The notes under the pieces: generated by a model
Databases searched by the model: none
Told to the model about the DNA's origin: nothing
The model's input: only the letters and a program-made list of their open reading frames with translations
Assembly: GCA_964036195.1 (NCBI GenBank)
Contig: OZ038456.1
Span: forward strand, 3,782,001-3,846,000
From: Sphaerolaimus hirsutus
Taxonomy: Eukaryota; Nematoda; Chromadorea; Monhysterida; Sphaerolaimidae
Length of the DNA stretch: 64,000 nucleotides
Reading direction: 5' to 3'
In this document: positions 153-62,629 of the stretch, piece by piece
Position numbering within the stretch: the stretch's first letter is position 1
Layout: the number at the start of each line of letters is the position of its first letter
Translations under genes and position numbers: made by a program

Positions 153-1165
153 CAGGGTTGGCAAAATCTCAGAAAAAAATAAAAATAAAATAAAAATAAA
201 ATGAAATATTAAAGAATAAAATAAAATAAAATAAAATGGAAAATTTAAGAATAAAAGTAAAAATTGTATAAAAATTTAAATTTTTGTAAAATTGTATAAA
301 AATTCGTATTTTTGTAAAATTGTATAAAAATTCATATTTTTTGTAAAATTTTATCTCGTTGCTTGAGTTTCTACCTGTTTATTCATGTATCTGGGAGCAG
401 CCCCAAGTGTAAAGTGTCAAATGTCATGCAAAATGTCATGCAAAGTGTCAATTGTCATGACAAATGTAAGGTAAAGTGTAAATTGTCATGACATGTAAAA
501 AATAAAGTATTAATTGTCAAGCAAATTGTGTCCAAATCTTTTGTTTTGTATCTAAATCTTATGTTTTGTATCCAAATTATGCTGTTTTTGAATCCAAATC
601 TTATGTGAACATTTGGATACAAAATTATAAGATTTGGATACAAAACATACAATGGATACAAAAACACAAGATTTGGATACACAATTTACACTTTGCATGA
701 CATTTGTCATTACAATTGCCACTTTGCTTGAAATTTGACATGACACTTGACATTTGTCATGACAATTGACAAATTGCATTACATTTTACAAATGTGCCCA
801 GCACACTCCACTAGTCCTTATACTGAAAATGCAAACCATTCTTATCAATAATTGTAACTTTACACTTGCAGCTGGCTAACAATACATACTGCATGCAACT
901 TTTGAAAATTAAGGGAAAAATTGGTCACAGGTTTTTCATGTATGGGTCTAATTATAACATTTTTCTGGCCTTGCATGCATGATTCTGATTTTTTGTAAAA
1001 TTTTTGTAAAATTTTTGTAAAATGTATCATTTTTTTTTATTAATGACTTTTGGGAATAAAATAAAATAAAATAAAATGAAACAAGAATAAAATAAAAATA
1101 AAATAAAATTTTTATAAAATTTTTATACAATTTTACTAAAATGAATTTTTATAAAACCAACCCTG
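153..1165. mobile_element. hAT-like non-autonomous element, family A (A1)
   Basis: The ends are CAGGGTTGG and CCAACCCTG, flanked by a perfect 8-bp duplication ATCATGAC (145-152 and 1166-1173). An 8-bp TSD with a CAG-start TIR is diagnostic of the hAT superfamily. Both ends carry AAAATAAAAT arrays followed by TTGTAAAAATTTTTG-type repeats. The centre (about 415-785) holds TGTCATGACAAATG and TCCAAATCTTATG motifs in inverted arrangement, resembling family K. No transposase reading frame is present. It interrupts the 53-bp satellite. Confidence 0.9.
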
Positions 1166-1233
1166 ATCATGACTGATCACCAGGCACTTCACAGCCCATG
1201 ATCACACTTTAGAGCCTGATCACACCCAATCAC

Positions 1234-1589
1234 TGATGGAATGCACTCCATCAACACTTCACAAACTTTATTACTATTGTAAATTGTTTACATGTTGAAC
1301 AAACCCAGAAATTCGTGAAGATTGTTGAAGTCTGTGAAGACACTCCACTGCAGATCACAGCAGATCACCAGCACTATTTTTACTGTGATAAAGTGCATTC
1401 AATTTGACCAGAATAATTACAAAATGCAACAATCCATGGTTTTAAATTTGAAAACGCAAAAATGTGCAAAAAATACATATTTTTGGAAAAATGTCATAAG
1501 TTATGTAACATATGATCAAAAATCAGATTGAAATTTAAACACTTTTTCTGGGGTTTGCCTAATGACAACTCGAAGTTCACCCAATGCAG
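1234..1589. other. No gene seen (intron or intergenic)
   Basis: AT-rich unique-looking sequence between the satellite and the first kelch exon. Small open frames here have no recognisable domain. Confidence 0.6.
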
Positions 1590-1833
1590 CTGGCAATGGC
1601 GCAGCGATGCGGATCAACCAAAATGATTATTCGGTCACAACATTGCCATCCGTACTGGCATCGTTTACATATCGGAAACACGCCGCCGGTGCACTCATCG
1701 ATGACCAAGGTACGGTCCAATTGACGATTGTGAATTCATCACTGTACCCAAACATTCACCGATTCACAGGCACTTTCATGGTTTGTGGAGGACAGTTGCT
1801 AGACTCTAATGCCTTTATGAACACATGCTATAC
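1590..1833 (+). CDS. Kelch-repeat exon (internal, partial gene)
   Basis: This exon reads through 80 codons in one frame. Near its end is FMVCGG, the double-glycine hallmark of a kelch blade, followed by DSNAFMNTCYT. I place the acceptor at gcag (1586-1589, phase 1; a second gcag ending at 1604 is also in phase) and the donor at c|gttagt (1833/1834, phase 2). The phase-2 end joins exactly to the exon at 5892, giving CYT-YD, the expected strand order after the GG pair. Kelch blades form beta-propellers that bind partner proteins. The presence of Cys and lack of a BTB region leave open an extracellular propeller. The gene must start upstream of the window because the exon begins mid-codon. Specific function unknown. 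Confidence 0.65.
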
Positions 1834-1953
1834 GTTAGTACCTGCTACCAGACTTTTCAAGTCTGGTGTGAAATACACCACATATTTACCATCCCCATAC
1901 AAAAGTGTTACAAAGGATTCGTTTTTTTAGTCTTGTATAAAGACGGAGTTACA

Positions 1954-2372
1954 GCATAACGATAAATAGAAGGTGAAGCGACAAATACATGTCGCCGCAA
2001 ATTTGATTTCTCAAGAACGCTTTAAGCTCCATCCCTAAATTGACATGTTGAAAGCACTCACAGATATCTACATCGTGTCCAAAAATTATCCAAAACGCGA
2101 CAGTGGTTCGTTGGATATCAATGAAAAACAAAAATTTCGCTATTTGTCGGCGATCTCAACGAGAAATGCTGCCGACAAATAGCGAAATTTTTCTTTTTCA
2201 TTGATATCTCAAGAACCACTGGAGCTTTTTGGATAATTTTTGGACACGATGAAGATATCGGTTGGTGTTTTTTCAACATTTCAATTTAGGGATGGATACC
2301 TTTAAGCGTTCTTGAGAAATCGAATTTGCGGCGACATGTATTTGTCGCTTCACCTTCCATTTATCGTTATGC
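1954..2372. repeat. Fold-back element, about 200-bp arms
   Basis: The left arm starting gcataacgataaa (1954) returns as its reverse complement ending at 2372. Arms include gaaggtgaagcgaca and tcaagaacgctttaa, and the loop centres near 2163 between two copies of gacaaatagcgaaattt. Arm identity is high but broken by small differences. It lies in the intron after the first kelch exon. It looks like a MITE or fold-back transposon; no duplication could be fixed at the ends. Confidence 0.8.
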
Positions 2373-2697
2373 TCCGGCTTAAAGGGAACTGAAAAACTCA
2401 CAGTCATGGTGATAGGAGTCCAAGCTCGATGAAAGTATGAATCAATGATTTGTATATCATTGTGTAAGCGGTGCACACTGCACGTTGCAGTGATTTATTG
2501 TGATGTGCACTTTATTCACATATAGTGCCATGTATTTTTTTACATGAACAAAAAATAAACAAAGTCGAGGTAAAATTAGCTTCTCAAGATTGTCGGAAAC
2601 GCACCGGGGCACCGGGCACCGAAGGGCACCAGCACCGGTGCGGTGCAGTGCCCGTTTTCGAGGGTGCCCTGCCGCCGAAGTAAAATGCGCCAGCCAA
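2373..2697. other. Intronic sequence with a short GGCACC array
   Basis: Positions 2594-2688 contain caccggggcaccgggcacc and caccggtgcggtgcagtgcc, a fragment of family G arrays seen complete at 28.5 kb. The rest shows nothing recognisable. Confidence 0.6.
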
Positions 2698-2705
2698 GTT
2701 TTCAT

Positions 2706-3003: not shown

Positions 3004-4299
3004 TAACGATGGCAAACACCCCGAAAAAAAAAGTATTTAAATTTTTAAGTGTTTTTTCACAAATGAATTTTTGAATTTTCGAATTTTTCCTCAAATTAAT
3101 TTTCGAATTTCAAATTTACTTTTCGAATTTTTGAATTTTCAAATCTTTTTTGGCAATTTTCAAATTTTTTTGGGTAGTTTTCGATTTTTTTGAAATTTTT
3201 TTTCGAATTTTCTTGAAGAAATGTTGAATTTGAAGCTTTGAATGCAGTATTCATATAGTTTTAATGGTTGAACGCTTTTTAAAATTACTGTATTTCTTCA
3301 AAATATCCCCCACCACCCCCTTGAATTAGCCCCTCCCCCTCTAAATACTGCCAGGTCAGAGCGACCACTCTGAAAAAATAAACCCTCTGAGTGGGTATTT
3401 TCACTGTGATTTGATATACCTTATTACCTCGAAACACCCCCATGGGGGTTTGTTATTTCGTCATCAAAATTTGAGGGGGGTTAATTCGAGGGGGTTTATT
3501 TTTTCATCAGAAATTTTTGTAAGTATTGTAGCAAAGAGTAGTCATTTACGTACCCAAAACATGTAATAAATGCATTCAAACAGGATATATTAGGACTCAA
3601 CGTGCATCGCTACACAAACTAGTCTCTATGTGCAGTTGCGATGCACTTTGGTTGCAATTAATACATCATCTACATTGAATCCATGATGTATTTACTTCAT
3701 TCCAGGGGGTATTATTTCCCCAGCTCATTTTGAGGGGGGTTAGTTCAAGGGGAGTTAATTCAAGGGGGGTTTGATTGAGGATTTGTAGGATTCGGGGGTT
3801 TGTACAAATAAGTATGCCGTTTTCCAGAGCATTTTCCATGACTTTGACATGTTGCATGACATTTGACACTTTACCTGACATTTTACAGGGTCTGGAACTG
3901 GAAGCGGCAACATGTCGGATGGACTTGTTAGACAGTGCTCTGTTCAACAACTTGCAACAACAACACAACTTTTCATTTTAGATCTTATTTTTACATGACT
4001 TTAGAATGTCTTTACAATTAACACAAGACCGCTTTTTTGACGTTTTTATTTGTTACATTACTGTTTCTCAGACACACCTCATATCAATTGTTGATTGAAA
4101 TATCACATGTAACGTGAGAATGCGTTTTGTGACCTTGCATTTCCTGAAAAATTCGAAAATTATTTTTGAATTTTCGAATTTATGAATTTTCGAATTTTTT
4201 GAAAAAAAATCGATTTTTAAGTGTTTTATAAATGATTATGAAAAAATTCGAAAATTCGAAAATGTTTTCGAATTTTCGAATCTTTTTTTGCCATCGTTA
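3004..4299. mobile_element. hAT-like element, family N (N1), 1.3 kb
   Basis: Ends are TAACGATGGCAAA and TTTGCCATCGTTA with a perfect 8-bp duplication GTGGCCAC (2996-3003, 4300-4307). Both subterminal regions (3030-3230, 4140-4285) are arrays of TTCGAATTTT. The interior holds a decayed family E segment (about 3290-3790, C/G-run rich, tatttcttcaaaatatcc) and a family K segment (about 3815-3960) ending tttacagggtctgg. No transposase is visible. Confidence 0.88.
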
Positions 4300-9990: not shown

Positions 9991-10362
9991 GTATTGACTG
10001 GTGATCACTTGTTGAGTTTGACAATTATTTTTTACAATTTCGACTTTGTGATGTTTAGATATTTACATACCTAGAGTGCTGGAAACCAGAAAATAATTTC
10101 ACCATTTGAGAGTACAATTTGAACACTCAAATGGCGCTGGGGCCGCAGGTGTGGAAACTCACTATGAAAATTTACCAGTGAAAATGTCTTGAAAACAGAA
10201 AATCATTCCATAGAAAAATTCAAGGAATGCCCAGCAAAATTGAAATGTTGCCAGTATTTTGTGTTTTATAGAACATCTGCATGATCTACAATAAATTGCA
10301 ATCATAAAAAAATAATAAAGGTAATAATAATAAACAATAATAATAAATCAATACCATGCATA
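9991..10362. other. No feature seen
   Basis: AT-rich unique sequence after the last kelch exon, ending in a (TAATAA)n stretch at 10315-10350. Confidence 0.5.
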
Positions 10363-10784
10363 CCGTATTACCTCGAATTATCCCCCCTTGAATTAACCCC
10401 CCCCCTCGAAATACCCCCCTAAATTTCGGCTGAGGAAATAATAAACCCCCCCTCGAAATACCCCCCCTAAAATTGAGTGTAACGTGAACGTACATGACAA
10501 ATACCGCAGTTTGTGATCTGTACTATGCAGAACACACATTAACACTGATGATTAGGTGACGTTAGGGAAGGGTTTTTGTGTATATATACAGTAATATGTG
10601 CCTATAAACACATATAAATCTATGTGATTGTTAGATTTTTCTACGTCTGCGTATGGGGAATTTCCGAAAAATTTCTGGCGAAATAATAGACCCCCCCTCG
10701 AATGAACCCCCCCTCGAATTATCCCCCCCTCAAATTTTGCTGGCGAAATAATAAACCCCCTGGGGGTATTTCGAGGTAATACGG
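10363..10784. mobile_element. TA-flanked MITE, family E (E3), 422 bp
   Basis: ta|ccgtattacctcgaatta at the left and tatttcgaggtaatacgg|ta at the right are inverted repeats with TA duplications. Internal C-runs and the middle cgtacatgacaaatacc plus cagaacacac match the copies at 21142 and 28033. Confidence 0.85.
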
Positions 10785-11986
10785 TATAATAAACCAATAC
10801 CGTATAATGTAAATATATAATAAACAGCCGCATGCTGTAAATACAGTAACTTCCAAGAAATTAATACATTGTTATTAGCCTTAAGAGTTTCAGATATTAA
10901 AAAATAAAAATAAAAATTAAGTACCGTATTGGCTTGTTTTTTTTGTACCCACAGTGCTGTTTTTTTCACAATGCTCTCACAGTGGCACTCATTTCGAGCA
11001 TGGTACTGTATTATTTCGTACAGATTATCTGGAAATAGAATGCAAAAAATTAAGGATAAGCGCTTTGTTCTAAGCCCAAGATGCAATGCATCTGCATTAC
11101 AGTGACTAGTGATCAGACATACAACAATAGAAAATTTGATTTGATCACTATTATTAGAATCTTCTAAATTCTGTCATTATGTAAGGCCAAAACACGTATT
11201 TTTCACCCATCGCTTTGAAGTTCCATATCCCTGCCATGTTCTTTTATCACTTGTATTCAAATTAGAGCGTCATCACCACCGGCAATGATGTACACACTCG
11301 TAAACTCGACTTACATGAAACGAATCAGGTTTGTTTGACTTATGTTTCCCTTCGCTGAGCGCAGACGACGTGAAACTTAGGTTCTAAGTTCGCAAAAATA
11401 AAAATAAAAATAGAAAAAGAATTTGCTTGTCTGCTAGATGTGAGTGAGTCATTTTCGCAAGCTGCGACGCTGTTTTCGCTTTTAAAGAGGATATGTAATT
11501 GCACTAAATTAAAAGCAAATTGCCTCATTTAATTACAATTTCTAACATAATAATAAACCATCATCTTTTATCGGGTGAAGTGTTTTAAATCCTAAAAACG
11601 CTCAAATGTGACATCTACGTTTGACCGTCTCATTTCTGCTTTTTTAGGACTAACCATACCCATTATTATGAAAAACAATCTTATCTATGTAAAAAATACA
11701 TACTTGGACAGAATGAAACTAGATAAATGATGGGTGAGTGCAACTTTTTGTTTTGATTTTTTTGGCCAATGTAATTTTTATGGATTTACATGTCTAACAC
11801 GAAACTTTGAGTGATGAGATGGCATCGCAGGAAATCCATTTTAATGTGGTAGTTCTTTACGGGTCAGCAAATTTATGTTTCATCGTCCTTAACCACCACA
11901 ATTTATTTTGGCATTGTGCCAAAATCCTGAAATGTGCATAGGCTCGATTCTATTCCATACGTGCATAAATATGTTGTCCCAGGTGC
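10785..11986. other. 1.2 kb without recognised features
   Basis: AT-rich. A short segment at 11330-11360 (cttatgtttcccttcgctgag) recurs at 54168. Open frames are short and without domains. Confidence 0.5.
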
Positions 11987-12448: not shown

Positions 12449-12603
12449 TAGGGTTCAGACGATATATCGTATTGAATATCGACAGTTTTTTCATGTCAAT
12501 ATTGAATATTTAGTTTCAGAAAACGATATTGAATATCAAGATTGAGTTTCAGCAAAGAAAATATCAAATATCGATATCGAAAAGTAATATCGTCTGAACC
12601 GTA
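12449..12603. mobile_element. hAT-like MITE with ATATCGAT array
   Basis: The left end TAGGGTTCAGACGATAT is mirrored by ATATCGTCTGAACCGTA with one mismatch. The body is gaatatcgata / cgatattgaatatc units. The TIR is nearly that of the element at 13938 (TAGGGTTCAAACGGGAT), but the array differs. No clean TSD. Confidence 0.6.
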
Positions 12604-13937: not shown

Positions 13938-14395
13938 TAGGGTTCAAACGGGATTGACTTTTCGGGATCGGGATCGGGATTGGTTTTTTGAGATTTCGGG
14001 ATCGGGATCGGGATTGGCCGGGATTGGGGTCACGGGATCGGGATCGGGATTGGCATTTTTTCGGGATCGGGATTGGGGTCTTGGGATAGAGATTTTGGCC
14101 AATGTTTTGGCATCCACAGTTGTTCATAAAGGTCTAAAAACACTGTTGGATGCCAGAAACGTGGCATATAATGAACGCTGGGGGTTTGCGTTCACATTTT
14201 TGCATGCCAAATCGTCGTTTTTTCACTTTTGATAATTTCCACTTATTTTTCCGGGATCGGGATCCCGGACTTTTGAGTTTCTCGGGATCGGGATCGGGAT
14301 TTGAAAAGTTTTGGGATCGGGATCGGGATCGGGACTGCTAAATCCCGGAATTTCACGGGATCCGGGATCGGGATCAGGATCCCGTTTGAACCCTA
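13938..14395. mobile_element. hAT-like element, family M (GGGATC array), 458 bp
   Basis: Ends TAGGGTTCAAACGGGAT and ATCCCGTTTGAACCCTA are perfect inverted repeats with a perfect 8-bp duplication GTGTGATG (13930-13937, 14396-14403). Two GGGATC arrays (13963-14070 and 14251-14380) flank a unique middle of about 150 bp. Confidence 0.9.
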
Positions 14396-21141: not shown

Positions 21142-22110
21142 CCGTATTCCCTCGAAATACCCCCCTCGTTAACCCCCCCCCCCTCTCGAGTCCACTATGA
21201 AACAATCACCCCCCCCTCGAAATACCCCCCCCAGATTGAGTGTAAACAGAACGTACATGACAAATACTCAGAGTAGTTAAAATACCGGTATTTTTGGAAA
21301 GTGTAAGTGTAAGTGTAAATACACTTTCCAAATTTTGAGTATGGATACCAAAAGTGTAAGGTATTTTTAAAATACCTAGGAAAGTGTAAAAAAAGTGTAA
21401 GTGTAAAAATTTTTTTTAGAAAGAGCTCTCACTGTTGAGCATTAGAAAACACCGCTGTTCTCACCTTTAGATCAATTTATTTATCATTTTCATGCATTAT
21501 TTCATATTTTACAGCCTTTTATGACACATTTGAGACTGTAACAAATACTGTAGTGGTATGAAGTTCCCTTATAATGGCAGTTTTTCAGTGTTGATAATTT
21601 ACTGATTAAGCAATGCGATACACACTGTTTAAATGCAAGAATGGACATGCAGCAAAGGTCAATGCAAAAGTTGACTTTGTGTCCAGTTGGTGAACTTCTA
21701 TTGATCTTGTCCTTTTTTACAATAGTATGATGAAACTGTAGAATACCATGATTACTGTTCAAAGGTTGTAGATCAAAGGCTAGTTTGTACATTTGCCATA
21801 TTTTCTACATTCAATGCATTTTTTGTACATGACCCTATTTTATGCTTACTCAACAGCATAAAACAGGGCCATCTGAAAGAAAAATACACTTTCTGTACCC
21901 GGGTATTTTGCCCAGGAAAGTGTAAAAAAAGTGTATGGGTATTTTATGAAAGTGTAAGTGTAAGTGTAAATATAAATACCCATTTACCCGGGTATTTCAG
22001 GTAAGTGTAAATACACTTTCGCAACTCTGCAAATACTGCACTTTGTGTTCTGCGTAGTGCAGAACACACGTTAAAACAATGTCGTAATTACGTTAGAACA
22101 GTGTTTATAC
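21142..22110. mobile_element. Family E copy interrupted by an H element
   Basis: Left end ta|ccgtattccctcgaaatac. The interior gaacgtacatgacaaatact continues after the H insertion as ctgcactttgtgttctg and cagaacacac, as in the uninterrupted E copy at 10480-10540. The right end is lost near 22110. Confidence 0.7.
21269..22029. mobile_element. hAT-like element, family H (H2), 761 bp
   Basis: Ends CAGAGTAGTTAAAATACC and CGCAACTCTG, perfect 8-bp duplication CAAATACT (21261-21268, 22030-22037). Subterminal arrays are gtaagtgtaaatac units on both sides of a unique 400-bp middle. The family E interior provides the paralogous empty site. Confidence 0.88.
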
Positions 22111-23424: not shown

Positions 23425-24263
23425 CAGGGTTGGCAAAATCTCAGAAACAAAAAAAAATAAAATAAAAATAAAATGGAAAATTAGAGAATAAAATAAAATA
23501 AAATAAAATGGAAAATTAATAAAATAAAAATACAATTTTACTAAAATTTGAATTTGAGTAAAATTTTAGTAAAATTGTACAATAATTCGATTTTTTGTAC
23601 AATTTTAGTAAAATTTTACAAAAACTCGAGTGTCTGTTAAATTCTATAGAAAGTTTTCTATCATGTTGCTTAAGTTCCTAGCTGCCAATTTGCAGAACTA
23701 GTGTCTTGTTGTATCTTTCATTGTTGTGATTGAAACATATCATTGCTCAAAATTGCAAATTTTCACATTTTTTAAAATATTTTCACCTTAAAGATCACTA
23801 ATTTATGTGATTTGTTTCCCATTTTCTTCGTTCCATACCTTGAAAAAGCCAATATATTGAACCCCGCAAGCCCCTACCCAAAAAAACAACCTAATTTAAG
23901 GTATCTTCCCTTGGGCGGAGCAATTAGATGCATATATCCAGGACCTCCTGAGGGTCAAAATACAAAATGCCTACCTCACAAATTGTGTCAAAAGTTTACA
24001 TAAATTTTTTTGTATTCATCTGCATGCTTCTAGCATGCACATTGTTTTATGTCCTTGTATCCAAGATTTTCAATTTTTTTGTAAAATTTTTGTAAAATTT
24101 TTGTAAAATTTTTGTAAAATGGTTTCATTTTATTTTATTAATGACATTTCAGAATAAAATAAAATAAAATAAACGGAAACATGAATAAAATTAAAATAAA
24201 ATACAATTTTAATAAAAATAAAATACAATTTTAGTAAAAAGAATTTTACTAAAACCAACCATG
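23425..24263. mobile_element. hAT-like family A element nested in B (A3)
   Basis: Ends cagggttgg and ccaaccatg, perfect duplication GTTGTGAT (23417-23424, 24264-24271). The intact B copy at 44358 reads gttgtgatcatgaaac with a single GTTGTGAT, a clean empty site. Body of AAAATAAAAT and TTTTGTAAAAT arrays. Confidence 0.92.
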
Positions 24264-31162: not shown

Positions 31163-31822
31163 TAGGGTGTCAAAAAAATTTTTTTACGGAAAACGGAAAC
31201 GGAAACGGAAAAAAATTTCAGCGGCCGGAAAACGGAACGGAAAACGGAAAAAAATTTGCACTTGGCGGAAAACGGAAACGGAAACGGAAAAAAATTTTCA
31301 GTGGCCGGAAAACGGAAAAAGGGGCCGGAAAAACGGAAACGGAAAAATGAAATTAGCATGGAAATGGAAAAAATTGCTGAAATTTTGCCAGAAAACAAAT
31401 AAAATTTGCTGAAATTTTGCTGGAAGTGGAAAAAATTTGCAGAGATTTTGCTGGAAACAGAAAAAATTCACATAATTGACAATCTGCATGAATGTTTACC
31501 AGTTCTGCTGGAACAGAAAACAGAAAGTTGAGCCAGAAAAAGGTAAAATGTGGCAGAAAAAGAGAAAATTGAGGCGGAAAATGGAAAAAAGCCAGAAAAA
31601 CTGGAAATTGAGCCGGAAAATGGAAAAAAGGCGGAAAAACTGAAAATTTAGCCGGAAAACGGAAAATGAGCCGGAAAAACGGAAACGGAAAACAAAGTGG
31701 CCGGAAAACGGAACGGAAAACGGAAAAAAAATTTCAGCAGCCGGAAAACGGAACGGAAAACGGAAAAAAATTGCCTGCGGAAAACGGAAACGGAAAACGG
31801 AAAACGGAAATTTGACACCCTA
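31163..31822. mobile_element. hAT-like element, family D (CGGAAAA array), 660 bp
   Basis: Ends TAGGGTGTCAAA and TTTGACACCCTA with a perfect 8-bp duplication GTCGCGAC (31155-31162, 31823-31830). Almost the entire interior is an array of cggaaaa / cggaaac units in one orientation, decaying towards the middle (31370-31560). Open frames across it are Lys/Arg- or Phe-rich artefacts. Confidence 0.92.
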
Positions 31823-32491: not shown

Positions 32492-34315
32492 TAGGGTGTC
32501 AAATTTCCATTTCCGTTTTCCGTTTCTGCCTTTCCGCAGGAAAATTTTTTACCTTTCCGTTTTCCGTTTTCCGGCAGCCGCAAAAATTTTACCTTTCTGT
32601 TTTCCGTTTTCTGGCAGCCAAAAATTTTTTACCTTTCCGTTTTCCGGCAGCTGAAAATTTTTTACCTTTCCATTTCCGTTTTACCAGACCATTTTTCCAT
32701 TTTCTGGCTTGATTTTCAGTTTTCTGGCATTTTTCCTTTGTTTTTCCAATCTGTATTTATCTTCAATTGGCTCATCCCATTGTGTTGTTTTTGTCTCTTG
32801 GAGCAGCATTGACAACTGGGATTTCAGGGTCAGTGAAACAGGTGCTGTGAACCCAATTGGGTCATTTGCTGACACCTATAATTTATTCAAGTTTCGTCTG
32901 GTTGGTGTTGTGATGCTGTCAATTTGCAATTTTGGTGTTGATATTGCCAGCATGTCCGTTCGGTGATTTTATTTCATGCCCATTACTGCGGCAATTTTAT
33001 TCACCTTTGGACTCCTGTCATTTTCTGCTATTTCATTCATGACTGATCTGGAGTTTGACAGCCATTCCCTCATGTTCATAGAACATTGGTTAAATAAAGC
33101 TTTGACTTTGTAATATAGTTCTAAAGCTTAAACTTCATTCGTGACACTCATGATGAAGTTATCGACATAAATGTTGTTTATTATTATTGCCAACTGGTTT
33201 CATTCCCCTTCATTTTCTTCATATTCATTCATGTTGTTTATTGTCAGATTTAAATGGTATTTTCTGACTGCTCCCAAAATTGCTGGGCTGCAGACAAGTC
33301 CAAACAGTACGCGTTTAAAACGAAGTACTATTAAGTTATTTTCAGTTACTGGTTTGAGGCATCTTTCAGCCAGAAAAATCGTGTGTAGTCTCTAGCTTGG
33401 TCATGCAATCCTATTTGCAAAAATGCCTTTTCAATATTGGCAATAAATGCTAGATTGCCTGCCCTGAACCTCAGGAGTAGGCCCAGTGCTAATGGTGTTG
33501 TAATTGGTCCTCTAAAAAGGCACTCATTGAAACTGGGCTTACCTGCCAACCCATCGTACACGATTCTGCATGATGTCGATCTGCCCGGCGTGATTACTGG
33601 CTGGTGTGGCAGGTAATGAATCCCCTTGTTATCTGTTTTGTCGTCACAGATCTCAATTGATCCCTTTTCTAGTTGGTCGTCCAAAACTTTCCGGTATTGT
33701 TTGAATAAGTTTGGATCTTTGTTGAATCTTCTTATCAGTGATTTAAACCGCACCAAGGCTTCTGCTTTTCCCGTGGGCAGGTCACTGATACTCTCTTTAT
33801 ACGGCCAGTCAATATAGTATTGTTTGTTGTTGTCGTTCAATTTTATGCTATTTATTATCATCTCCTCTGCAATGTTGTCATCAATTGCATAGGGGTCATC
33901 AGTGATTCCCACTGCTTCTAGACTGTGAAATTGTCGTAGTGTTTCCTTTCCTATGGCCACTATGGCTACTTTTTGATGATTTTTTGTTGGTTCAGTTAAG
34001 CTTGAACTACAAGTGAAGTTACAGGCATGATCCATAGTTGCAGAATGTACATCTACCACAATCAAAGCCAAACAGGCAAACCTGCATGCAGGTTTTCCTT
34101 CTGCAAATTTGTCTATTACCGTGATAATTTCACTTTTTTTTCTGTTTCCGTGAAAATTTTGCTTTCCATTTTCCGTTTTCTGGCATTTCATTTTTCCGTT
34201 TTCCGTTTTCCGGCCAACAATTTTTTTTACCGTTCCGTTTTCCGTTTTCCGTAAAGTGAAAAAAATTTACCTTTCCGTTTTCCGTTCTCCGTAAAAAATT
34301 TTTTTTGACACCCTA
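32492..34315. mobile_element. hAT-like family D element (D2) carrying BEL/Pao sequence
   Basis: TAGGGTGTCA at 32492 and TGACACCCTA ending at 34315 are flanked by a perfect duplication CAGCAGGG (32484-32491, 34316-34323). Subterminal TTTCCGTTTTCCG arrays occupy about 32500-32710 and 34135-34300. The 1.3-kb centre is decayed retrotransposon pol on the minus strand. The element therefore mobilised as, or later became, a composite. Confidence 0.9.
32760..34060 (-). pseudogene. BEL/Pao retrotransposon pol fragment (reverse transcriptase, decayed)
   Basis: Reading on the minus strand from about 34060: YYIDWPYK, then DDQLEKGSIEICDD, YLPHQPVITPG, SCRIVYDGLAG and LLRFRAGNLAFIANIEKAFL, all landmarks of the BEL/Pao reverse transcriptase palm. 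A frameshift follows FFWLKDASN (near 33350). The family continues in another frame with RFKRVLFGLVCSPAIL. The catalytic YVDD box reads YVDN (about 33160). Then come REWLSNSRSV and, near 32870, NDPIGFTAPVSL of the downstream connector. Protease, integrase and LTRs are not seen. It is certainly non-functional. The open frame at the start runs without a break into the D-type array. Confidence 0.88.
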
Positions 34316-34489: not shown

Positions 34490-35563
34490 TGGTAAAAACG
34501 CTCTTACAGGGGTTTATTTTTTCAGAGTGGAAATTTTGAGAGAAAAACGTGAAAAATGCAACAATAACCACCAATTTTATGTTTTTACATCCTTGTATCA
34601 GAGTTGTTCAAATACTGGTATTTTTGGAAAACGTTAATGTAAACGTAAATACCTTTTCCAAATTTAAAGTATAAATACTAAAACGTAAGGTATTTTAAAA
34701 ATACCAAGGAATACGTAAAAGAAAACGTAAACGTAAAAATTTCAAGAAGTACCCCATATGAGCAGAGCTTCTGAAAAGACCATTGTTGTGACATTTTCAA
34801 CAATGTATTCATGATTTCCATCCACATTTTTCACCTGCATTTCACAGCAAACAAAATATCTTTATTGAAATGTTTGTCTTTGTAAATGAATGTTGGTGCT
34901 GATGGCCTTGCAGTTTAGCAAGCTCTTGGATTAGAACACTTCTTCATCAAACATTACATTTCTGCTAAACATCAGCACAATATGAATGAAACAAAACAGT
35001 GAAAGGTTGTCTAATACACAATACACACACATAAATACACACATTCCATTTTCTGCTTGTATTTATAGGTATTAATTATTCATTCACCACACTGTTCACA
35101 TTCAACAATTGACACATTGATTACATTTAAAATTGCTTGATTACATTTTTAAAGAATATTTGCACTGTCAAAATGACAATTACACAACACAATTGGCATT
35201 ATGTCCAATTGGTATAACTATTTACACAAAATCTATATGTGACTGTATGTAGTAATAGAGCACATTTGGCAGACGCGTGGTTAGATTTTTACGTTTTCTC
35301 TGGTACCCGGGTAATTGTGCCAGGAAAATGTAACAAAACATAATGGTATTTTTGGAAAACGTAAACGTAAGTATAAATACCTGAATAACCGGGTATTTCA
35401 GGTAAACGTAAATACGTTTTTCCAACTCTGCCTTGTATAAAGATGTAGATGGTATGAATGATGTTCTAACGTAACACAGTAAGTGTTTTGAACGTCTGTT
35501 ATGCATTTCCCGGACGACAAATACCTAGTGCCCATTTTGAGGGGGGTATTTCGAGGAAATACG
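34490..35563. mobile_element. Family E copy interrupted by H3
   Basis: Right end gggtatttcgaggaaatacgg|ta at 35563. The left part (cttacaggggtttattttttc) is close to the E start. The halves join across the H3 duplication. The left terminus itself is eroded. Confidence 0.55.
34599..35430. mobile_element. hAT-like element, family H (H3), 832 bp
   Basis: Ends CAGAGTTGTTCAAATAC and TTTTTCCAACTCTG, perfect 8-bp duplication CCTTGTAT (34591-34598, 35431-35438). Subterminal arrays of aaacgtaaatac units at both ends; unique middle without coding. Confidence 0.92.
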
Positions 35564-37888: not shown

Positions 37889-39509
37889 TAGTGATGGAAA
37901 AGCGCCATGGCGCTGGCGCCTGGCGCTAGCGCCAAAGCAAAAAGCGCCATGGCGCTTTTGGCGCTTGGCGCTAAAATGCTCTGGCGCCATTGGCGCTTGG
38001 CGCCGCGATCTGAGAAAGCGCCATGGCGCTTTTGGCGCTTGGCGCTATTTTCTGGTGGCGCTATTGGCGCCTGACGCCAGCAATTTAAACAGCGCCAAAA
38101 AAGCGCCAACCATAGCGATAGAATTTTTAAAATACAGGTACATAAATACATTGATATTTGAAAACTTGTTGATGATGATAATTTACTAAACATTGATTTT
38201 GAAAAACATCTCTGAATTTTGTACTGTATTGTTGATGTGTCTTGTAATTGTCATTTTCCTGTAAGTTTGTATATTTAAGTTTTATTATAAATTTACCACT
38301 ATGTGAAATCGTAAATCAGAGCTATGAAAAACATAGTAAATTCTAAAAACACACTAAAAGCCCTATAATAACTCCCCATGTTAGCTAAGTAGGGAACAAA
38401 AAACTCCCTTTGAACACCTTCCCATCTGACAAAAAACTCCATGGTGATTCATATGATAAATATGCTGCAATAAGAAATACCGTATTTCCTCGAAATACCC
38501 CCCCCCCCCTCGAAATACCCCCCCTCAAAATGGACACTATGAACTTATAAACCCCCCCTCGAAATAACCCCCCCCCAAAGTTAGTGTATAGAGAACGTAA
38601 ATGACAAAGGCTGCGGTTTGTCATCCCGACAATGCAGAACACACGTTAAAAACGATGACTCTGTTATGTGAGAACAGTGTTTGTACGTCTACACACTTAT
38701 AAATGTCTTTAGAGTCTTATAAATGGCGATTTTTGTTGCATTTTTCGACGTCTGCGTACGTTTCAGACGACATTTTAGTACTGGGATTTCAAAAAATTTC
38801 TGGCGAAATAATAAACCCCCCCCCTCGAAATACCCCCCCCCCTCGTTTAACCCCCCCTCAAAATTCTCACTCTGAAACAATAAACCCCCCGGGGGTATTT
38901 CGAGGAAATACGGTATGCCACATTGTAATGGTTAATTGAACGTTTCCTACAAATGGCATGTAATTGCATATATACATTAGTTAACTAATGAAAGTTTACA
39001 CATTTTGTGAAGTCATAAATCATCTTTGGGTGCATTTGAGTTTACTGGCTTGAGTTATCATTACTCTCAATCAAATAGTTTTTGAACATATGATTCCAGT
39101 ACAGGTTAAAGTTTATTTATGAGTTTACAAATTTTTAGTTAGTAAACCCTATTTTAGTTTACTGGAAGTAAACTAGTGTGTGTGCAACGCCCTCGTAGTA
39201 AGTTCAATCAACAGAACCCCGAAACATCGGCGGTACGATTACATATTTATGATATTTACGTCAGATCTACATATCTATACTTATTATTCTGCAAACAAAT
39301 TTGGCTTGGCGCCATTGTTGTCTGGCGCCATTGGCGCTTGGCGCCGAAGTCCAGAAAAGCGCCATGGCGCTTTTGGCGCTTGGCGCCATCTTGCTCTGGC
39401 GCCATTGGCGCTTGGCGCTGGGGGTCGGAAAAGCGCCATGGCGCTTTTGGCGCTTGGCGCCAAAACCTTGGCGCTTGGCGCCAAAACCTTGGCGCTTTTT
39501 CCATCACTA
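37889..39509. mobile_element. hAT-like element, family F (GGCGCC), 1.6 kb
   Basis: TAGTGATGGAAAAGCGCC and GCGCTTTTTCCATCACTA, perfect duplication CTCCGGAT (37881-37888, 39510-39517). GGCGC arrays at 37900-38110 and 39303-39500. The middle includes family E copy E8 and a segment ending gtaaactagtgtgtgtgc (about 39168-39186), resembling a P terminus. No transposase. Confidence 0.92.
38480..38913. mobile_element. TA-flanked MITE, family E (E8), 434 bp
   Basis: ta|ccgtatttcctcgaaatac and gtatttcgaggaaatacgg|ta, perfect TIRs of about 19 bp. C-runs inside both ends; middle with gacgtctgcgtacg. Confidence 0.88.
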
Positions 39510-39614
39510 CTCCGGATACTTTACATGACATTTGAGAGTTTACAGGGTATTTTACAGTACTGGGTCTGAGTGGCCTTGGGAACTGCACAGTTTTATGAGT
39601 GAAAAAGGTGTGAC

Positions 39615-39738: not shown

Positions 39739-39739
39739 G

Positions 39740-40860
39740 TAGTGATGGAAAAGCGCCAGGAAAAATGGCGCCAGGATCCAATGGCGCCATGGCGCCATCT
39801 GAAAAAATGGCGCCGGGCGCCAAAGGGCGCCATAAACAATGGCGCCAGGCGCCAAAATGGCGCCAACAATAAAATTCACTATTTCAGCCTGTAAATCATC
39901 ACAGAAGCATTAAGAGTAGAGCAACGTGCTGTACCATTTTTCTGATGGTGACTTAAGCCATAAAACTCACCTTATCGTGAATATTACCTACTGTATTTCG
40001 CTATAATACCCGCTCGAAATATCCCCGGGTGTTTTCAAGCTGGGGAAAAAATAAACCCCCCTCGAAATACCCCCGTCTGGAATTATGTACATCATGTATG
40101 CAATGTACATCATGTATTTATTGCTCGCAGTTTGCATAGCAGCATCACTTTAGTTTGTGTAGCGATGCACATTGTAAGGTCCAGATATACCCTATTTGGA
40201 CACATTGATTGCCGGTATTGGGTATATAAAAGCGTTGTCCTACTATGAATTTCATGAAAATTTCTGACGTTTCAAAATTTCAGTTTCTAAATTTCATAAT
40301 GAAACCCCTCTCGAATAAGCCCCTCTCGATAGCCCCCCTCATCCAAAATACCCCTAGGACTGAGCAAGCTGTGGAAATTATAAACACCCCCAAGGGTATT
40401 TCATGCAAATACAATGCATTGTAAACAGGAATCAATTATGTAATGGCTGTGAAAAATCTCATTTAAGATTCACACTTTTCCAATTGTCATATTTAAATAC
40501 CTATTTGCAGTTTATGTGATATAAAAGAATCAACATGAACCCAAACTTGCAATGCTGGCGAAAATTCCAAAGGTGTAAGCATGAAATATCACCTAAATGA
40601 CATCATTCAGCAGAAAAAGCATTTTAATGTGGCCAAATATAATCACGCGGCATCTTGGCGCCATTTCTAGTGCCATCCAAAATAATCGCGCCGGGCGCCA
40701 AATTGGCGCCAGCGAAAATAGCGCCAAGCGCCAAGGGCGCCATGGCGCCATTCGAAATAATGGCGCCACGGAAAAGGGCGCCAAGCGCCAATGGCGCCAT
40801 GGCGCTGGCGCCCTTTGGCGCCCTAAGGGGCGCCAGCGCCATGGCGCCATTCCATCACTA
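39740..40860. mobile_element. hAT-like element, family F (F2), inserted in the end of F1
   Basis: TAGTGATGGAAAAGCGCC at 39740 and GCCATTCCATCACTA ending 40860; perfect duplication ATCACTAG (39732-39739, 40861-40868), the target being the F1 terminus. GGCGCC arrays flank a middle shared with 5220-5650, within which a decayed family E copy (39985-40410) sits. Confidence 0.88.
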
Positions 40861-40868
40861 ATCACTAG

Positions 40869-41331: not shown

Positions 41332-42367
41332 TAACGATGGCAAACCCTCCAAAAAAAAGTATTTAAATTTTTAAGTGTTTTTTTCCAAAATGAATTTTCG
41401 AATTTTTGAATTTTTCCTGACATTAATTTTCAAATTTCGAATTTAATTTTCGAATTTTGGAATTTTCGAATCTTTTTTGGCAATTTTTGAATTTTTTGGG
41501 CTATTTTTCGAATTTTTTCAAATAATTTTCGATTTTTTTTGGAAAAATATTGAATCTGAAGCTTTAAACGCAGAATTGGGACTGTTTTGGAAGTGGGTGA
41601 CACACTGAGTGTACTCAGTGCATACAGTGCTGACTTCACAAGATACGGGTACTTCTCAAACCAATACTCGAAACCACTCTTATACTCCAGCGACATTACA
41701 CCTTACAATGAAATCTACCATACCCCATCTGAATAAAAGGACAAACATTACATTTTTTTAATTATTTTTATCAAATTGCTTTGATAAATATGCTGAATTT
41801 TTTTTTTGGTTCTGTTATTCAGATGGGATATGGTAGATTTTCAATGTAAGGTGTTATGTGGCTGGAGTATCTCTTTGATCACATCCCTTTTACTTATAAA
41901 TATGTGCAGTTCCTTTGGGCAGTCCCAGACACCTGTAAAATGCTCTGTGAAATGTCAAATGTTATGCAAAATGTCTAAAGTCATGGAAATGCTGTGGAAA
42001 ATGGCAAATATGTTAGCCATTTTCAAGGGCATTTTCATAACTTTTGACACTTGCAAGACATTTCACATTATACATTTCAACGTTTTTGGACGTTTTTTTG
42101 TTTTGTTTCGCTTTTTCATACGCACCGCGTATCATTTGTCGTTTTATTTTGCACGTTGAACCTATGAGTGCGTTTTTTTGCATTGAATTCCCTAAAAAAT
42201 TCGAAAAGTATTTTCGAATTTTCGAATTTTTGAATTTTCGAATTTTTTGAAAAATAAATCGATTTTTAAGTGTTTTTTTAGGGGTGAAATAAAAATTCGA
42301 AAATTCCGAAAAAATTCGAAAATTCGAAAATGTTTCCGAATTTTCGAATATTTTTTTGCCATTGTTA
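41332..42367. mobile_element. hAT-like element, family N (N3), 1.0 kb
   Basis: TAACGATGGCAAA and TTTTGCCATTGTTA, flanks TAAATGAC and TGAATGAC (7 of 8). TTCGAATTTT arrays at 41395-41530 and 42195-42350. The middle (41915-42080) is a family K segment. Confidence 0.82.
41920..42080. mobile_element. Family K segment inside N3
   Basis: gggcagtcccagacacctg, then aaaatgctctgtgaaatgtc and inverted partners (ggcattttcataactttt, cttgcaagacatttcac). Matches the K copy in the sushi exon at 52938. Confidence 0.6.
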
Positions 42368-45036: not shown

Positions 45037-45052
45037 TTCCATGTACTTGCAG

Positions 45053-49035: not shown

Positions 49036-49908
49036 TAGGGTGTCAAAGTTTTTTTTAATGAAAACAGTAACGTAAATTTTTTCTGCTGCCGGAAAATGGA
49101 AAGGTAGGAATTTTTCCTGCAAAAAGACAGAAACGGAAAACAGAAAAATGGGCCATAAACAAGATAAGTACCGTATTACCTCGAATTACCCCCCCCCCCC
49201 GCGAATTACCCCCTCCCCCCTCGAATTAACACCCCCCCTCAAAATGGGCTGGGGAAATAATACCCCCCTCAAAATACCCCCCTTCGGAATGATGTACGTC
49301 ATGTACATATTAAATACATCATGTATGCAATGTACATTACTGCTAATTTGCATTGCAGCTACACATAGACTAGTTTGTGTAGCTATCTACGTTTTTATGT
49401 CTAAATATAACCCGTTTGGACACATTTATTACCTGTTTTGGGTAAGCAAATGCCTACTTTTTACTACAATCCTTACGAAAATTTCTGACGAAATAATAAC
49501 CCCCCTCAAATACCCCCCTAGAATTGACCCCCCCTAAAATTTTGCTGGCGAAATAATAAACCCCCATGGGGGTATTTCGAGGTAATACGGTAAAAAGATT
49601 TTCAGCTGCCGGGAAACGGAAAGGTAGAAAATTTTCGGCTACAGGGAAACGGAAAATGGAAACGTAGAAAAGTTTCCTGCAGAAATACATAAACGGAAAA
49701 CAAAAAAAACAGAAAAATGGGCCATAGGCAAGATAGGCAAAAAAATTCAGCTGCTGGAAAATGGAAAGGTAAAATTTTTCGGCTGCAGGGAAATGGAAAA
49801 TGGAAAGGTAAACATTTTTCAGCTGCCGGAAAACAGGAGGCCAACAGGTAAAAGATTTACCTGCGAAAGACGGAAATGGAAAATGAAAAACGGAAAGTTG
49901 ACACCCTA
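49036..49908. mobile_element. hAT-like element, family D (D3)
   Basis: TAGGGTGTCAAAG and GTTGACACCCTA, flanks CCCCAGAT and CCCAAGAT (7 of 8). Interior of ggaaaacggaaa and ggaaaggtagaaaa units, more diverged than D1, with family E copy E9 nested inside. Confidence 0.82.
49171..49590. mobile_element. TA-flanked MITE, family E (E9), 420 bp
   Basis: ta|ccgtattacctcgaattac and gtatttcgaggtaatacgg|ta. Middle with acgtcatgtacat and tttggacacatttattacc shared with E7. Confidence 0.85.
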
Positions 49909-57421: not shown

Positions 57422-58264
57422 CAGAGTTGTAAAAACGTATTTACGTTTACCCGAAATACCCGGTTATTTGGGTATTTATACTTACGCTTACGTTTACGTT
57501 TTCAAAAAACACCATTACGTTTTGTTACGTTTTCCTGGCCAAAATACCCGGGTACCAGAGAAAACGTAAAAAACGTTATTTGAGAAAACATTTAATAGCT
57601 TATTCTCAGAAATGCACTTTCAAACAATGTGTAATAGGTCCCAAAGGAATAGACATTAGACAGAATGCTTTCTGTTCGCACTCCGAAACACTCACCTATG
57701 TAAATATGTACACAAAAAATACCATTTAGGTATTGAAAATATTAGAACTGAATTGAGGTGGGTTTTCATTGTGCGGTCTGTGTGATCGTTTTGTGAATGC
57801 TAATTTGGTGCACGCTGGTTTTACCCATCAATCAAATGTCTTCAAAATAAATTGCATACTGAACTGTCAATGAATGAGTCTGGTAATGATGACAATAAAT
57901 GCATGATACAACAAAACGACATGTCATCACAGTCACATCCCAAAACCAGGTGGTGATAATCACAGCATCACTGTCTCATTTTTCGTTCCTCCAAAAATTC
58001 ATTATTATTCATCCCTCTAGATAAAATAAAAGCAGATAATGTGGGTGGAGATCATAGGAACAACCGTGATGTTGTAAAAACATGGCTTTTTATGTCCTCT
58101 CACAGTGGAAGCACTTAATAAATTTTTTACGTTTACGTTTTATTTTATGTTTTCCCAGGTATTTAAAAAATACCTTACGTTTTAGTATTTATACTTCTGA
58201 TTTGGACAAGGTATTTACGTTTACGTTTACATTTTCCAAAAATACCAGTATTTGTACAACTCTG
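57422..58264. mobile_element. hAT-like element, family H (H4), 843 bp
   Basis: CAGAGTTGTAAAAACGTAT and GTATTTGTACAACTCTG, flanks TCCGTATA and TCCATATA (7 of 8). acgtttacgtttacg arrays near both ends; unique middle without coding. Confidence 0.85.
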
Positions 58265-60230: not shown

Positions 60231-60261
60231 GAATTTTTTAGTAATCAGAGAAGTAAACAGA

Positions 60262-60720: not shown

Positions 60721-60724
60721 TGTG

Positions 60725-61085
60725 ACCAAATATTTTTGTTTGCTCAAATAATCCCCCACTCCTGAGATTAGGGCGTCTATACAAAGGTGTTCATTTTGTA
60801 TGCCTTATCTGGACATTGCTTTTGAAGCTTAATAAGTTGGTCATTTATGGGCTGTTTATGAGCGGTCAACAATTAAAATGATAAGGACAGCGTGCAGATT
60901 CAATTTTTGTGGTCGGATTAGTGATGTGTAAATTTCATATGCTGATTTGCTCCAGTTGAATGAAAATGCATGCAATTTCAGAACTCAATATCTCAGCTAT
61001 TTCTCAACCGATTTTCACCAATAAACACTTAAAATAATCAGAATCACCTAGAGCTTCCATATTTATGTTCCAATTATCAGCCGCT
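60725..61085. repeat. Sequence related to element J interior, inverse orientation
   Basis: tttgtttgctcaaataat and ggcgtctatacaaaggtg match 19210-19290 reversed. aataagttggtcatttatgg corresponds to the gttgagttattaag region of J. Confidence 0.5.
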
Positions 61086-61089
61086 ACTC

Positions 61090-61410
61090 CTAGACCCTGT
61101 AAAAAAACCTTGAAAAGTGTCAAAGACCCTGTAAAATGTCATGTGTAATGTAAAATACCCTGTAAAGTGTTATGTGTATCCAAATCTTATTTTATAATAT
61201 CCAAATCTTATGTTTTTGTATCCAAATCTTTCATTTTACATAAGATTTGGATACATAAAACGTAAGATTTGGATACAAAAACATAAGATTTGGAAACACG
61301 TGACACTTTACAGGGTATTCTACATGACATTTGACAATTGACAGGGTCTTTTACATGACACATGAAATTTTACAGGGTCTTTGACACTTTACAGAGTCTT
61401 TACACAAGAT
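61090..61410. mobile_element. Family K element with central hairpin
   Basis: agaccctgtaaaa... at the left and gacactttacagagtc at the right. tccaaatcttatgttttt units (61180-61235) are mirrored by cataagatttggatac units (61238-61300). No TSD fixed. Confidence 0.65.
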
Positions 61411-61799
61411 TATGCCTAATCGGATCAAAAAAAATAAAGATAAAGTTGGCCTTGAATAGTGATGTAAAAAACGCCAGACTTTTGGAGCCAAGCGCCAAAA
61501 GCACCAATGGCACCACAGCAAAACAGTGCCAAGCGCCAAAAGCGCCATGGCGCTTTTCATGAACAAGGCGCCAAGCACCAATGGTGCCAAAGGATGTTGG
61601 CACCAAGCACCAATAGCACCAGCACCAAAAAATTTTGCTGCTCCTCAAGTGCAGCAAGCTAATTCAGTGCTATTTACTTGTGTAAGATGCAAGATTACAC
61701 CTAATCGAGACAAGTTTTCTTCTTTTTGTTGATGTTATTTTACAGCTGAGAGTTCCGGTTGACAATGGCAAGCCATCGCGGAAAAAAGTGCTTAGATTT

Positions 61800-62310
61800 A
61801 TAAAGATAATGTCATGTGTCATGTAAAAGACTGTTTAGTGTCAAATGTCATGTAAAAGACCCTTTAAAGTGTCATGTGTATCTAAATCCTATTTTATAGT
61901 ATCCAAAACTTATGTTTTTGTATCCAAATCTTACCCTTTTACATAAAATTTGGATACAAGAACAGAGAGTTTGGATATGACAAAATGAGATTTAGATATG
62001 ATAAAATAAGATTTGCATACACATGACACTTTACAACGTCTTTTATATGACATTTTACACTTCACATGGTTTTTACAAGACACCTGACCATGGTCAGTTG
62101 TATAAAATTTATTTGTATACAAATTGTATAAAAATTGTTTTTTATTGTAATTTTATTCTTGTTTCATTTTATTTTATTTTATTTTATTTTATTCTTCAAT
62201 TTTCCATTTTATTTTTTTATTTTTTTTCTCTGAGATTTTGCCAACCCTGCACCTGACATTTTACAGAGTCTTTTACACTCTACAGGGTTTGTTACAGGGT
62301 CTGGGAGTGG
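61800..62310. mobile_element. Family K element nested in F
   Basis: tcatgtgtcatgtaaaagac at the left, tttgttacagggtctgggag at the right, with tccaaatcttac / aaatttggatac hairpin motifs between. Interrupted by A4. Confidence 0.65.
62089..62249. mobile_element. hAT-like family A element, minimal (A4), 161 bp
   Basis: CATGGTCAG at the left and CCAACCCTG at the right with a perfect duplication CACCTGAC (62081-62088, 62250-62257). The body is only ATTTTATTTT arrays, in reverse orientation to A1. Confidence 0.88.
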
Positions 62311-62629
62311 CACCAGGTACATTGCACATTAACATATAATATCAACAATACAACTTGATTTTCAACACAATGTAACACCATGCATTCGAACATCTCTCAT
62401 TGGCCCATTATTTGGGAAAAGTGTTGAATATCATTGTAATTCCATGAACATGTATACAAAAAAAGCAGTAGAGGACTTGTTCTTCCTGAATACACTTCTG
62501 AACACAGCGCCAAGCGCCAATGGCACCACAGCAAAAAGGCGCGAAGCAACAAAAGCGCTGTGGCGCTTGTTGCTTTGGCGCAAGCGCCAGGCACCAGCGC
62601 CATGGTGCTTTTACATCACTAGCCTTGAA

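What the first reader, a model, noticed from the sequence alone, without database searches (positions are those of the whole stretch)
153..62621. Array-bodied hAT families: short hAT ends wrapped around family-specific motif satellites
Seen directly: fifteen elements with exact 8-bp duplications (ATCATGAC, GTTGTGAT, CACCTGAC, GTCGCGAC, CAGCAGGG, GTGTGATG, GTGGCCAC, CTGCCAGG, AGATAGAT, CAAATACT, CCTTGTAT, CTCCGGAT, ATCACTAG, GCCTTGAA, GTATGCAT). Nine have T at position 2 and eleven have A at position 7, matching the known hAT target consensus nTnnnnAn. Most bodies are arrays of a single 6-10 bp motif: CGGAAAA, GGGATC, GGCGCC, TTCGAATTTT, ACGTAAATAC, AAAATAAAAT, GGTACGGTA. Known background: plant Ac/Ds transposase binds repeated subterminal hexamers. 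Inference: these arrays are amplified transposase-binding sites that came to fill whole elements, one motif per transposase lineage.
Basis: partly seen in the sequence, partly recalled or inferred. Interest (0 to 1): 0.75.

Follow-up and report, generated by a model that had tools for sequence, protein, structure and literature searches.

The report
hAT transposons with switchable binding-site codes
These are short, mostly non-coding hAT jumping genes whose two ends are packed with repeats of a short motif, one motif per transposon lineage, and in one lineage the repeats have changed together, one base at a time, into new versions that coexist in thousands of copies in the same genome.

Summary
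But the arrays do not fill the bodies. They are subterminal blocks (104-219 bp in 28 of 30 ends measured; two reach 248 and 297) around filler that is mostly unrelated between copies, as in maize Ds2. In the whole genome (348 Mb), hAT C-terminal domains lie inside elements with the same tips, duplications and arrays at 21 of 30 loci read. All 21 carry only their own family's motif of nine tested, and the domain tree follows the motif for families B, C2, D and E. A 6-kb E-type hAT (exact duplication, BED finger, dimerisation domain) has matching arrays. The new point is in family E: sister subfamilies share spacers, but their sites read ACGTA, GCGTA or GTGTA. Of 3,674 genomic copies of a three-site block, 3,096 are pure in one code. 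Each step is one base, in place. Arrays as transposase-binding sites is the best reading; in-place co-change of many sites, with an intermediate code still present, is the finding worth following. Binding is untested, and no transposase was assigned to GCGTA or GTGTA.

The parts
153..1165 (+). E1, family A (tip CAGGGTTGG, motif AATAAAA within ~100-130 bp of both ends), duplication ATCATGAC
   Evidence: 8 of 8 fetched genomic copies (the window copy included) each have an exact duplication
3004..4299 (+). E6, family D (TAACGATGGCAAA, motif TTCGAA), duplication GTGGCCAC
13938..14395 (+). E5, family C1 (TAGGGTTCAAACG, motif CGGGAT), duplication GTGTGATG
12449..12603 (+). family C2 copy (TAGGGTTCARACG, motif CGATAT and variants), duplication not established
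21269..22029 (+). E9, family E-alpha: 16 GTGTA sites, duplication CAAATACT
34599..35430 (+). E10, family E-beta: ACGTA sites in register with E9, duplication CCTTGTAT
57422..58264 (-). X57422, family E-beta, reverse orientation, duplication TCCGTATA/TCCATATA
23425..24263 (+). E2, family A, duplication GTTGTGAT
62089..62249 (-). E14, family A, 161 bp, nested inside E13, duplication CACCTGAC, weak tip match
31163..31822 (+). E3, family B (TAGGGTGTCAAA, motif CGGAAA / AAACGG), duplication GTCGCGAC
32492..34315 (-). E4, family B, carries a BEL/Pao-like reverse-transcriptase fragment, duplication CAGCAGGG
49036..49908 (+). family B copy, duplication CCCCAGAT/CCCAAGAT
41332..42367 (+). family D copy with a stretch like a D-family hAT domain (23 of 34 aa), duplication TAAATGAC/TGAATGAC
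   Evidence: Pfam alone gave no hit for that ORF
37889..39509 (+). E11, family F (TAGTGATG, motif GGCGC), duplication CTCCGGAT
39740..40860 (+). E12, family F, inserted at the tip of the F copy 39615-39738, duplication ATCACTAG
61457..62621 (+). E13, family F, duplication GCCTTGAA
29330..29548 (-). family F2 end (TAGTGATG, motif GCACCG)
   Evidence: F2 copies with exact duplications elsewhere in the genome

Best explanation
These are non-autonomous hAT elements built like maize Ds2: two ends, mostly 104-219 bp, that hold many copies of a short binding site for that lineage's transposase, around interchangeable filler. Shown: tips, 8-bp duplications, subterminal confinement, predominantly the same motif orientation at both ends, hAT coding remnants inside families B, C2, D and E, a 6-kb E-type hAT with BED and dimerisation domains and matching arrays, and in-place change of the sites between sister subfamilies. 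Inferred: the BED finger of each transposase reads the motif; a change in transposase specificity selected the matching change at all sites; the E series passed by single-base steps (ACGTA, GCGTA, GTGTA), so that a slightly promiscuous transposase could follow.
For: Confinement to ends. Ends of family members score above shuffles in 14 of 14 pairs, interiors in 2 of 11. Family B arrays contain AAACGG, 41 copies in 3.36 kb of three B elements against 14 in 60.6 kb elsewhere, the hexamer bound by Ac transposase (PMC3260210, passages). hAT domain between tips with a 7/8 or 8/8 duplication at 21 of 30 loci, each with only its own motif of nine tested; domain clades match families. Full-length E-gamma hAT: 6,006 bp, exact CCTTGGCG, zf-BED 22.8 bits, Dimer_Tnp_hAT 62 bits, GCGTA 13 and ACGTA 9 within 300 bp of the ends against 1 and 1 in the 5.4-kb interior. 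Co-change: alpha against beta consensus, left 15/15 switch columns, 0/24 core, 12/107 spacer; right 13/13, 1/21, 13/100. GCGTA subfamily: differs from beta at position 1 in 14/14 sites and from alpha at position 2 in 14/15, core 0/44. Genome-wide: 945 + 952 + 1,199 pure of 3,674. Literature: Hermes BED binds subterminal repeats and about 220 terminal bp are needed (PMC10368747, passages and section 8); BED-Hermes-type proteins prefer CGG, GCGC or AT-rich motifs (PMC8097297, parts 1 and 2 of 3), as in families B, F and A.
Against: No binding data. No transposase was found for the alpha (GTGTA) or delta (GCGTA) code, nor for A or F: the A and F copies beside hAT domains in L039 and L015 proved to be separate solo insertions. 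Nine of 30 domain loci did not show a matching tip pair with duplication (L015 did after extension). A genome-wide zf-BED search gave 10 matches, none of them the E-gamma finger. C1/C2 and F/F2 share tips and a little spacer homology but failed the in-register test. The Hermes paper judges auxiliary transposase binding inside the ends unlikely (section heading and passage). Motif orientation is mostly direct at both ends, not mirrored like the TIRs, which a simple symmetric synapse would not predict.
Confidence: 0.82

Rival explanations
1. The arrays are platforms for an element-encoded anti-silencing protein (like VANC of Arabidopsis VANDAL elements) rather than for the transposase; motif and protein co-evolve there too.
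For: [quoted passage not shown] Here too orientation is mostly direct at both ends, and over-represented 7- and 8-mers are rich in CpG (not so for 6-mers).
Against: Here the arrays lie within about 200 bp of the two tips in each family tested, the stretch hAT transposition needs (PMC10368747, PMC3260210 passages); VANC targets lie in introns and upstream regions and changed by repeat formation, not in place. No other known domain passed its cut-off in the nine ORFs of the 6-kb element that I scanned, which does not exclude a second protein.
Confidence: 0.1
2. The arrays are ordinary microsatellites that grew after insertion.
For: They are tandem and some are simple (AATAAAA).
Against: Arrays align site by site between independently inserted copies in E and F, F2, are interrupted by unique spacers, and stop at a fixed distance from the tip. 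Family A copies match E1 over its whole length at 92-94% with separate duplications in 8 of 8.
Confidence: 0.02
3. The code change is CpG decay or another mutational process, not selection: GCGTA to GTGTA is a CpG transition.
For: Decay products (ATGTA, ACATA) occur in beta copies (0.41 per left end); 6 of the 14 mixed blocks among the first 100 places are one C-to-T from a pure code (hand count).
Against: Decay would give GCATA as often as GTGTA; in the left ends of 30 alpha copies there are 240 GTGTA and no GCATA or GCGTA (these copies were the best matches to a GTGTA query). ACGTA/GCGTA is not a CpG change. E9 keeps CpGs in its ends outside the motif (1 left, 3 right). 945 genomic blocks are pure GTGTA at three sites.
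Confidence: 0.05
4. Gene conversion or slippage spread one mutant unit through the array.
For: Three of the sites are adjacent 6-bp units.
Against: Isolated sites between unique spacers, inverted sites and sites at the other end changed too, while neighbouring spacers mostly did not.
Confidence: 0.05

Closest known systems
Maize Ac/Ds, class Ds2 (hAT)
   Same: 8-bp duplications, ~200-bp ends with repeated AAACGG transposase-binding hexamers, unrelated filler (PMC3260210, passages). Family B arrays contain AAACGG.
   Different: Several families side by side in one genome, each with its own motif; several codes within one TIR lineage.
Hermes / Tol2 / Tag1 subterminal repeats
   Same: Repeated BED-bound sites concentrated near the tips; 100-220 bp of each end needed (PMC10368747, passages).
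   Different: Hermes sites are 4-mers AAG(T/C) in both orientations; here longer motifs in dense arrays and several co-resident codes.
CGG-binding proteins from hAT BED/Hermes domains
   Same: Measured preferences are CGG, GCGC and AT-rich words, with matches in subterminal regions of the parent hAT models (PMC8097297, parts 1-2).
   Different: Those are proteins; here are the DNA sides of what may be many such pairs, and their change.
VANDAL/VANC of Arabidopsis (Mutator-like)
   Same: Family-specific arrays of a short motif, same orientation, co-evolving with a TE protein (PMC5735166, passages).
   Different: Different superfamily and function; motif change through tandem-repeat turnover, not in place.
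Foldback and sea-urchin TU elements, CACTA subterminal motifs (recalled, from no call)
   Same: Ends made of short repeats; family-specific motifs.
   Different: Long inverted arms of tandem repeats, or other superfamilies.

Membership tests
hAT superfamily | 8-bp target-site duplication | tested here: met
   13-14 of 15 window elements; 25 of 30 alpha loci exact, 1 at 7/8, 4 without a right end in the locus; 8 of 8 family A copies
hAT superfamily | short TIR of the YA-G-G type | tested here: met
   tips listed; family D reads TAACG; the consensus form is recalled
hAT superfamily | hAT C-terminal dimerisation domain encoded by the same elements | tested here: met
   families B (11), D (7; L028 and L029 share a duplication and are probably one insertion), E (2), C2 (1) of 30 loci; E-gamma full-length
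hAT superfamily | the same for families A, F and C1 | tested here: inconclusive
   A and F copies near domains were separate insertions; no domain lay in a C1 or F2 element as its own
hAT superfamily | N-terminal BED zinc finger in the autonomous form | tested here: met
   one E-gamma element, two exons joined by my inferred splice, 22.8 bits over a cut-off of 20.6; the exons alone gave no hit
Ac-type hAT target preference (nTnnnnAn) | T at 2, A at 7 | tested here: met
   18 of 28 pooled, p = 0.0003; alpha T2 16 of 25, A7 15 of 25; the consensus is recalled, the string occurs in three papers of the listing that I did not open for it
Ds2-like non-autonomous element | conserved ~200-bp ends with binding motifs, unrelated interior | tested here: met
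   interior homology above shuffles in 2 of 11 pairs (E6 with 41332-42367; weakly E11 with E12)
transposase-binding site | bound by the cognate transposase in vitro | not testable with these tools
   needs protein
VANDAL/VANC-type anti-silencing array | bound by a demethylating TE protein | not testable with these tools
   no methylation data

The most novel reading that the evidence does not exclude
Family E records a protein-DNA recognition code changing step by step with every state still present: ACGTA, GCGTA and GTGTA subfamilies, each uniform over both ends where whole elements were read (about 16 sites), each with about a thousand genomic copies of a pure three-site block, sharing spacers and tips (alpha and beta with unrelated filler). 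If each code has its own transposase, new hAT lineages arise by escaping cross-mobilisation through in-place rewriting of the whole binding array, and the GTGTA code also removes CpG, freeing the sites from methylation.
Probability: 0.5. Interest if true: 0.8.

Novelty: new variant of a known kind. Interest (0 to 1): 0.68.

Why it matters
How a DNA-binding protein and many of its sites change together is an open question in regulatory evolution, because each single change should weaken binding. Here the DNA side of such a change is laid out with its intermediate, in thousands of copies that could be dated, so order, speed and tolerance can be measured, and the protein side can be tested with three short DNA probes. 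It also gives a simple mechanism for how transposon families become independent of each other, and a motif catalogue by which hAT families in poorly known genomes can be paired with transposases.

Tried and rejected
Arrays as whole bodies: rejected. L039 and L015 as autonomous A and F elements: rejected after extension; L015 turned out to be the E-gamma hAT. F/F2 and C1/C2 as further proven in-register switches: spacer scores exceed shuffles in some pairs (best 35 against a maximum of 23 for C1/C2, 32 against 20 for F/F2) but sites are not in register, so only suggestive. My earlier view that GTGTA cannot be reached by CpG decay was wrong once the GCGTA subfamily appeared; the argument now rests on the absence of GCATA. 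A second GCGTA triplet lies in L038; my attempt to align it took the wrong stretch and that row is meaningless, so the delta statistics rest on one element, L018:1-754, whose left flank was not held and whose duplication is therefore untested. Viral contigs: no match. GTDB genomes: 4 scattered bacterial matches to a loose pattern, taken as chance. A protein search with the BEL/Pao-like ORF gave four relatives covering 33-62% at 36-50% identity, so the host was not identified; the window is eukaryotic by its exons. CpG enrichment of over-represented words is clear for 7- and 8-mers, not for 6-mers. Of 44 PF05699 matches I read 30 (L021 and L022 overlap). The first-100 count was made by hand from the listing and agrees with the lists. 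Alpha and beta copies were the best matches to their own queries, so purity is partly selected; searches are not. Beta distance used 18 of 21 rows of full length, alpha 30 of 30. The null is a plain letter shuffle, so shared motifs alone lift end scores.
Full report
What is there. The window is a repeat-rich eukaryotic stretch with scattered host exons (kelch and PAN domains over their cut-offs, a hormone-receptor domain just below its own). It lies in a 348-Mb assembly at C9:3782001-3846000. Exact 8-bp duplications stand out, most clearly with perfect tips: 6 at 8 bp, 1 at 6 bp and none at 5, 7 or 9-11 bp. The nTnnnnAn bias holds (18 of 28, p = 0.0003). Three more elements of the same families have one mismatch in the duplication.

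Anatomy. The motif arrays are subterminal. Pooled over 16 elements, motif density is 5.6, 7.0 and 5.9 per 100 bp in the first three 50-bp bins from an end, 2.2 in the fourth, 0.37 in the fifth, and 3 hits in 7,384 bp beyond 250 bp. Over 15 elements the first site lies 11-74 bp from the tip and the array ends 104-297 bp from it, within 219 bp at 28 of 30 ends (the motif was relaxed to GGAAA or GCGCC for two old copies and shortened to GTGTA or ACGTA in E). In the families with non-palindromic motifs the sites point predominantly the same way at both ends of an element (A, B, C1, E), so the arrays are direct while the TIRs are inverted; three copies of the TA-flanked TACCGTATT family with sites in both halves show the same. 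Ends of copies in one family score above shuffles in 14 of 14 pairs; interiors more than 250 bp from the ends do so in 2 of 11 testable pairs, clearly in E6 with 41332-42367 and weakly in E11 with E12. E4 carries a BEL/Pao-like fragment as filler. This is the plan of maize Ds2, in which ~200-bp Ac ends surround filler (PMC3260210, passages). Family B arrays contain the Ac-binding hexamer AAACGG itself, 41 times in the three B elements against 14 elsewhere in the window.

Tie to hAT transposases. No hAT domain was found among 30 window ORFs scanned with Pfam. In the whole genome PF05699 has 44 matches. I read the 30 loci fetched. At 21 the domain lies between matching tips of one family with a 7/8 or 8/8 duplication: B 11, D 7, E 2, C2 1. 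In all 21, the terminal 200 bp on both sides hold that family's motif and none of the other eight motifs at three or more copies. The domain tree groups by family (short domains, modest support). Twenty of the 21 are 1.0-1.4 kb and one is 1.95 kb, so they keep only the C-terminal part. A window D copy, 41332-42367, has a stretch 23 of 34 identical to such a domain, which Pfam alone did not report. One further locus, L015 extended by L046 and L087, is a 6,006-bp element with E-type tips and exact duplication CCTTGGCG. Its exons include a BED finger (22.8 bits over a cut-off of 20.6 when two exons are joined; not found in separate exons, nor by the genome-wide zf-BED search) and the dimerisation domain (4.8e-17). 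Sites GCGTA (13) and ACGTA (9) cluster within 300 bp of its ends, against one each in the interior; GTGTA does not cluster (3 against 4).

Code change in family E. E9 (GTGTA) and E10, 57422-58264 (ACGTA) align through both arrays; interiors do not. At the two variable columns of the motif, 25 of 28 differ, against 1 of 43 in the GTA core and 21 of 206 in spacers (p = 1.5e-19). With motifs masked, 26 of 32 sites still fall in register. Genome copies confirm it: alpha has at least 40 close copies, 25 of 30 read with exact duplications; beta at least 40. Consensus of 30 alpha against 22 beta left ends: 15 of 15 switch columns, 0 of 24 core, 12 of 107 spacer; right ends (26 and 4): 13 of 13, 1 of 21, 13 of 100. 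Two E elements with hAT domains, L016 and L019, carry the beta code in register. Alpha copies are closer to each other (0.6%) than beta copies (2.0%), both being best-match samples.

A third state came from loci fetched for other reasons: L018:1-754 carries GCGTA at 15 of 16 end sites. Against beta it differs at position 1 in 14 of 14 sites and at position 2 in 1 of 15; against alpha, 0 of 14 and 14 of 15; core 0 of 44 in both; spacers 27 of 204 and 13 of 204. So ACGTA, GCGTA and GTGTA form a chain of single-base steps. An unbiased pattern with those columns free finds 3,674 matches genome-wide and none for the reversed control; 1,199 are pure AC, 952 pure GC and 945 pure GT, 3,096 in all, leaving 578 others. 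Independent sites at equal state frequencies would give about one ninth pure. In the first 100 listed places I count by hand 40 AC, 24 GC, 22 GT and 14 mixed; 6 of the 14 are one C-to-T change from a pure code and 2 read GT-GT-GC. The direction is not settled: the gamma hAT holds both ACGTA and GCGTA.

Reading. A transposase with one changed contact in its BED finger would favour elements with the matching base at many sites; redundancy of about 16 sites and a promiscuous intermediate would let arrays be rewritten site by site (inference). Measured hAT-derived BED-Hermes proteins prefer CGG, GCGC or AT-rich words (PMC8097297, parts 1-2 of 3 read), which matches families B, F and A. VANC arrays in Arabidopsis are the nearest precedent for motif-protein co-evolution but turn over by repeat formation (PMC5735166, passages). 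My searches for prior reports of concerted subterminal switching in hATs listed none that I recognised from the titles and abstract starts shown; these are capped lists, and subscription papers are mostly not held, so this is not proof of absence.

Limits. No binding data, no alpha or delta transposase, families A and F unlinked to any transposase, C1/C2 and F/F2 only suggestive, delta read in full from one element, host unnamed.

Noticed in passing
10361-10786, 28031-28463, 38478-38915, 49169-49592: A TA-flanked family (tip TACCGTATTACCTCGAA) also has arrays of CCCTCGAA, in the same orientation at both ends in the three copies with sites in both halves; possibly another superfamily with the same habit.
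   Followed up: partly
33349-34266 (-), inside E4: BEL/Pao-like reverse-transcriptase fragment as filler of a hAT element; two of four relatives carry PF05380 and PF00078.
   Followed up: partly
44141-45037; 23203-27066: Palindromic elements with 268-bp and ~163-bp arms; the longer one seems to split a family A copy (23031-27900).
   Followed up: no
G000:C1:7466186-7488779: Six BED-finger matches within 22.6 kb, with a seventh at 7679975; perhaps a BED gene cluster rather than transposons.
   Followed up: no
18187-19443: Element with TA-flanked tips CACTACCGTGCAGAATAGTTGAGACTTTT, Tc1/mariner-like, seen by eye, inside the composite 16880-19615.
   Followed up: no
window: Over-represented 7- and 8-mers are rich in CpG (60% and 77% of the top 60, against 31% and 27% of all words; 33% against 29% for 6-mers) although CpG is depleted overall (0.76).
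   Followed up: partly
39612-40868: E12 sits exactly at the tip of another F copy; its duplication ATCACTAG includes that tip.
   Followed up: no
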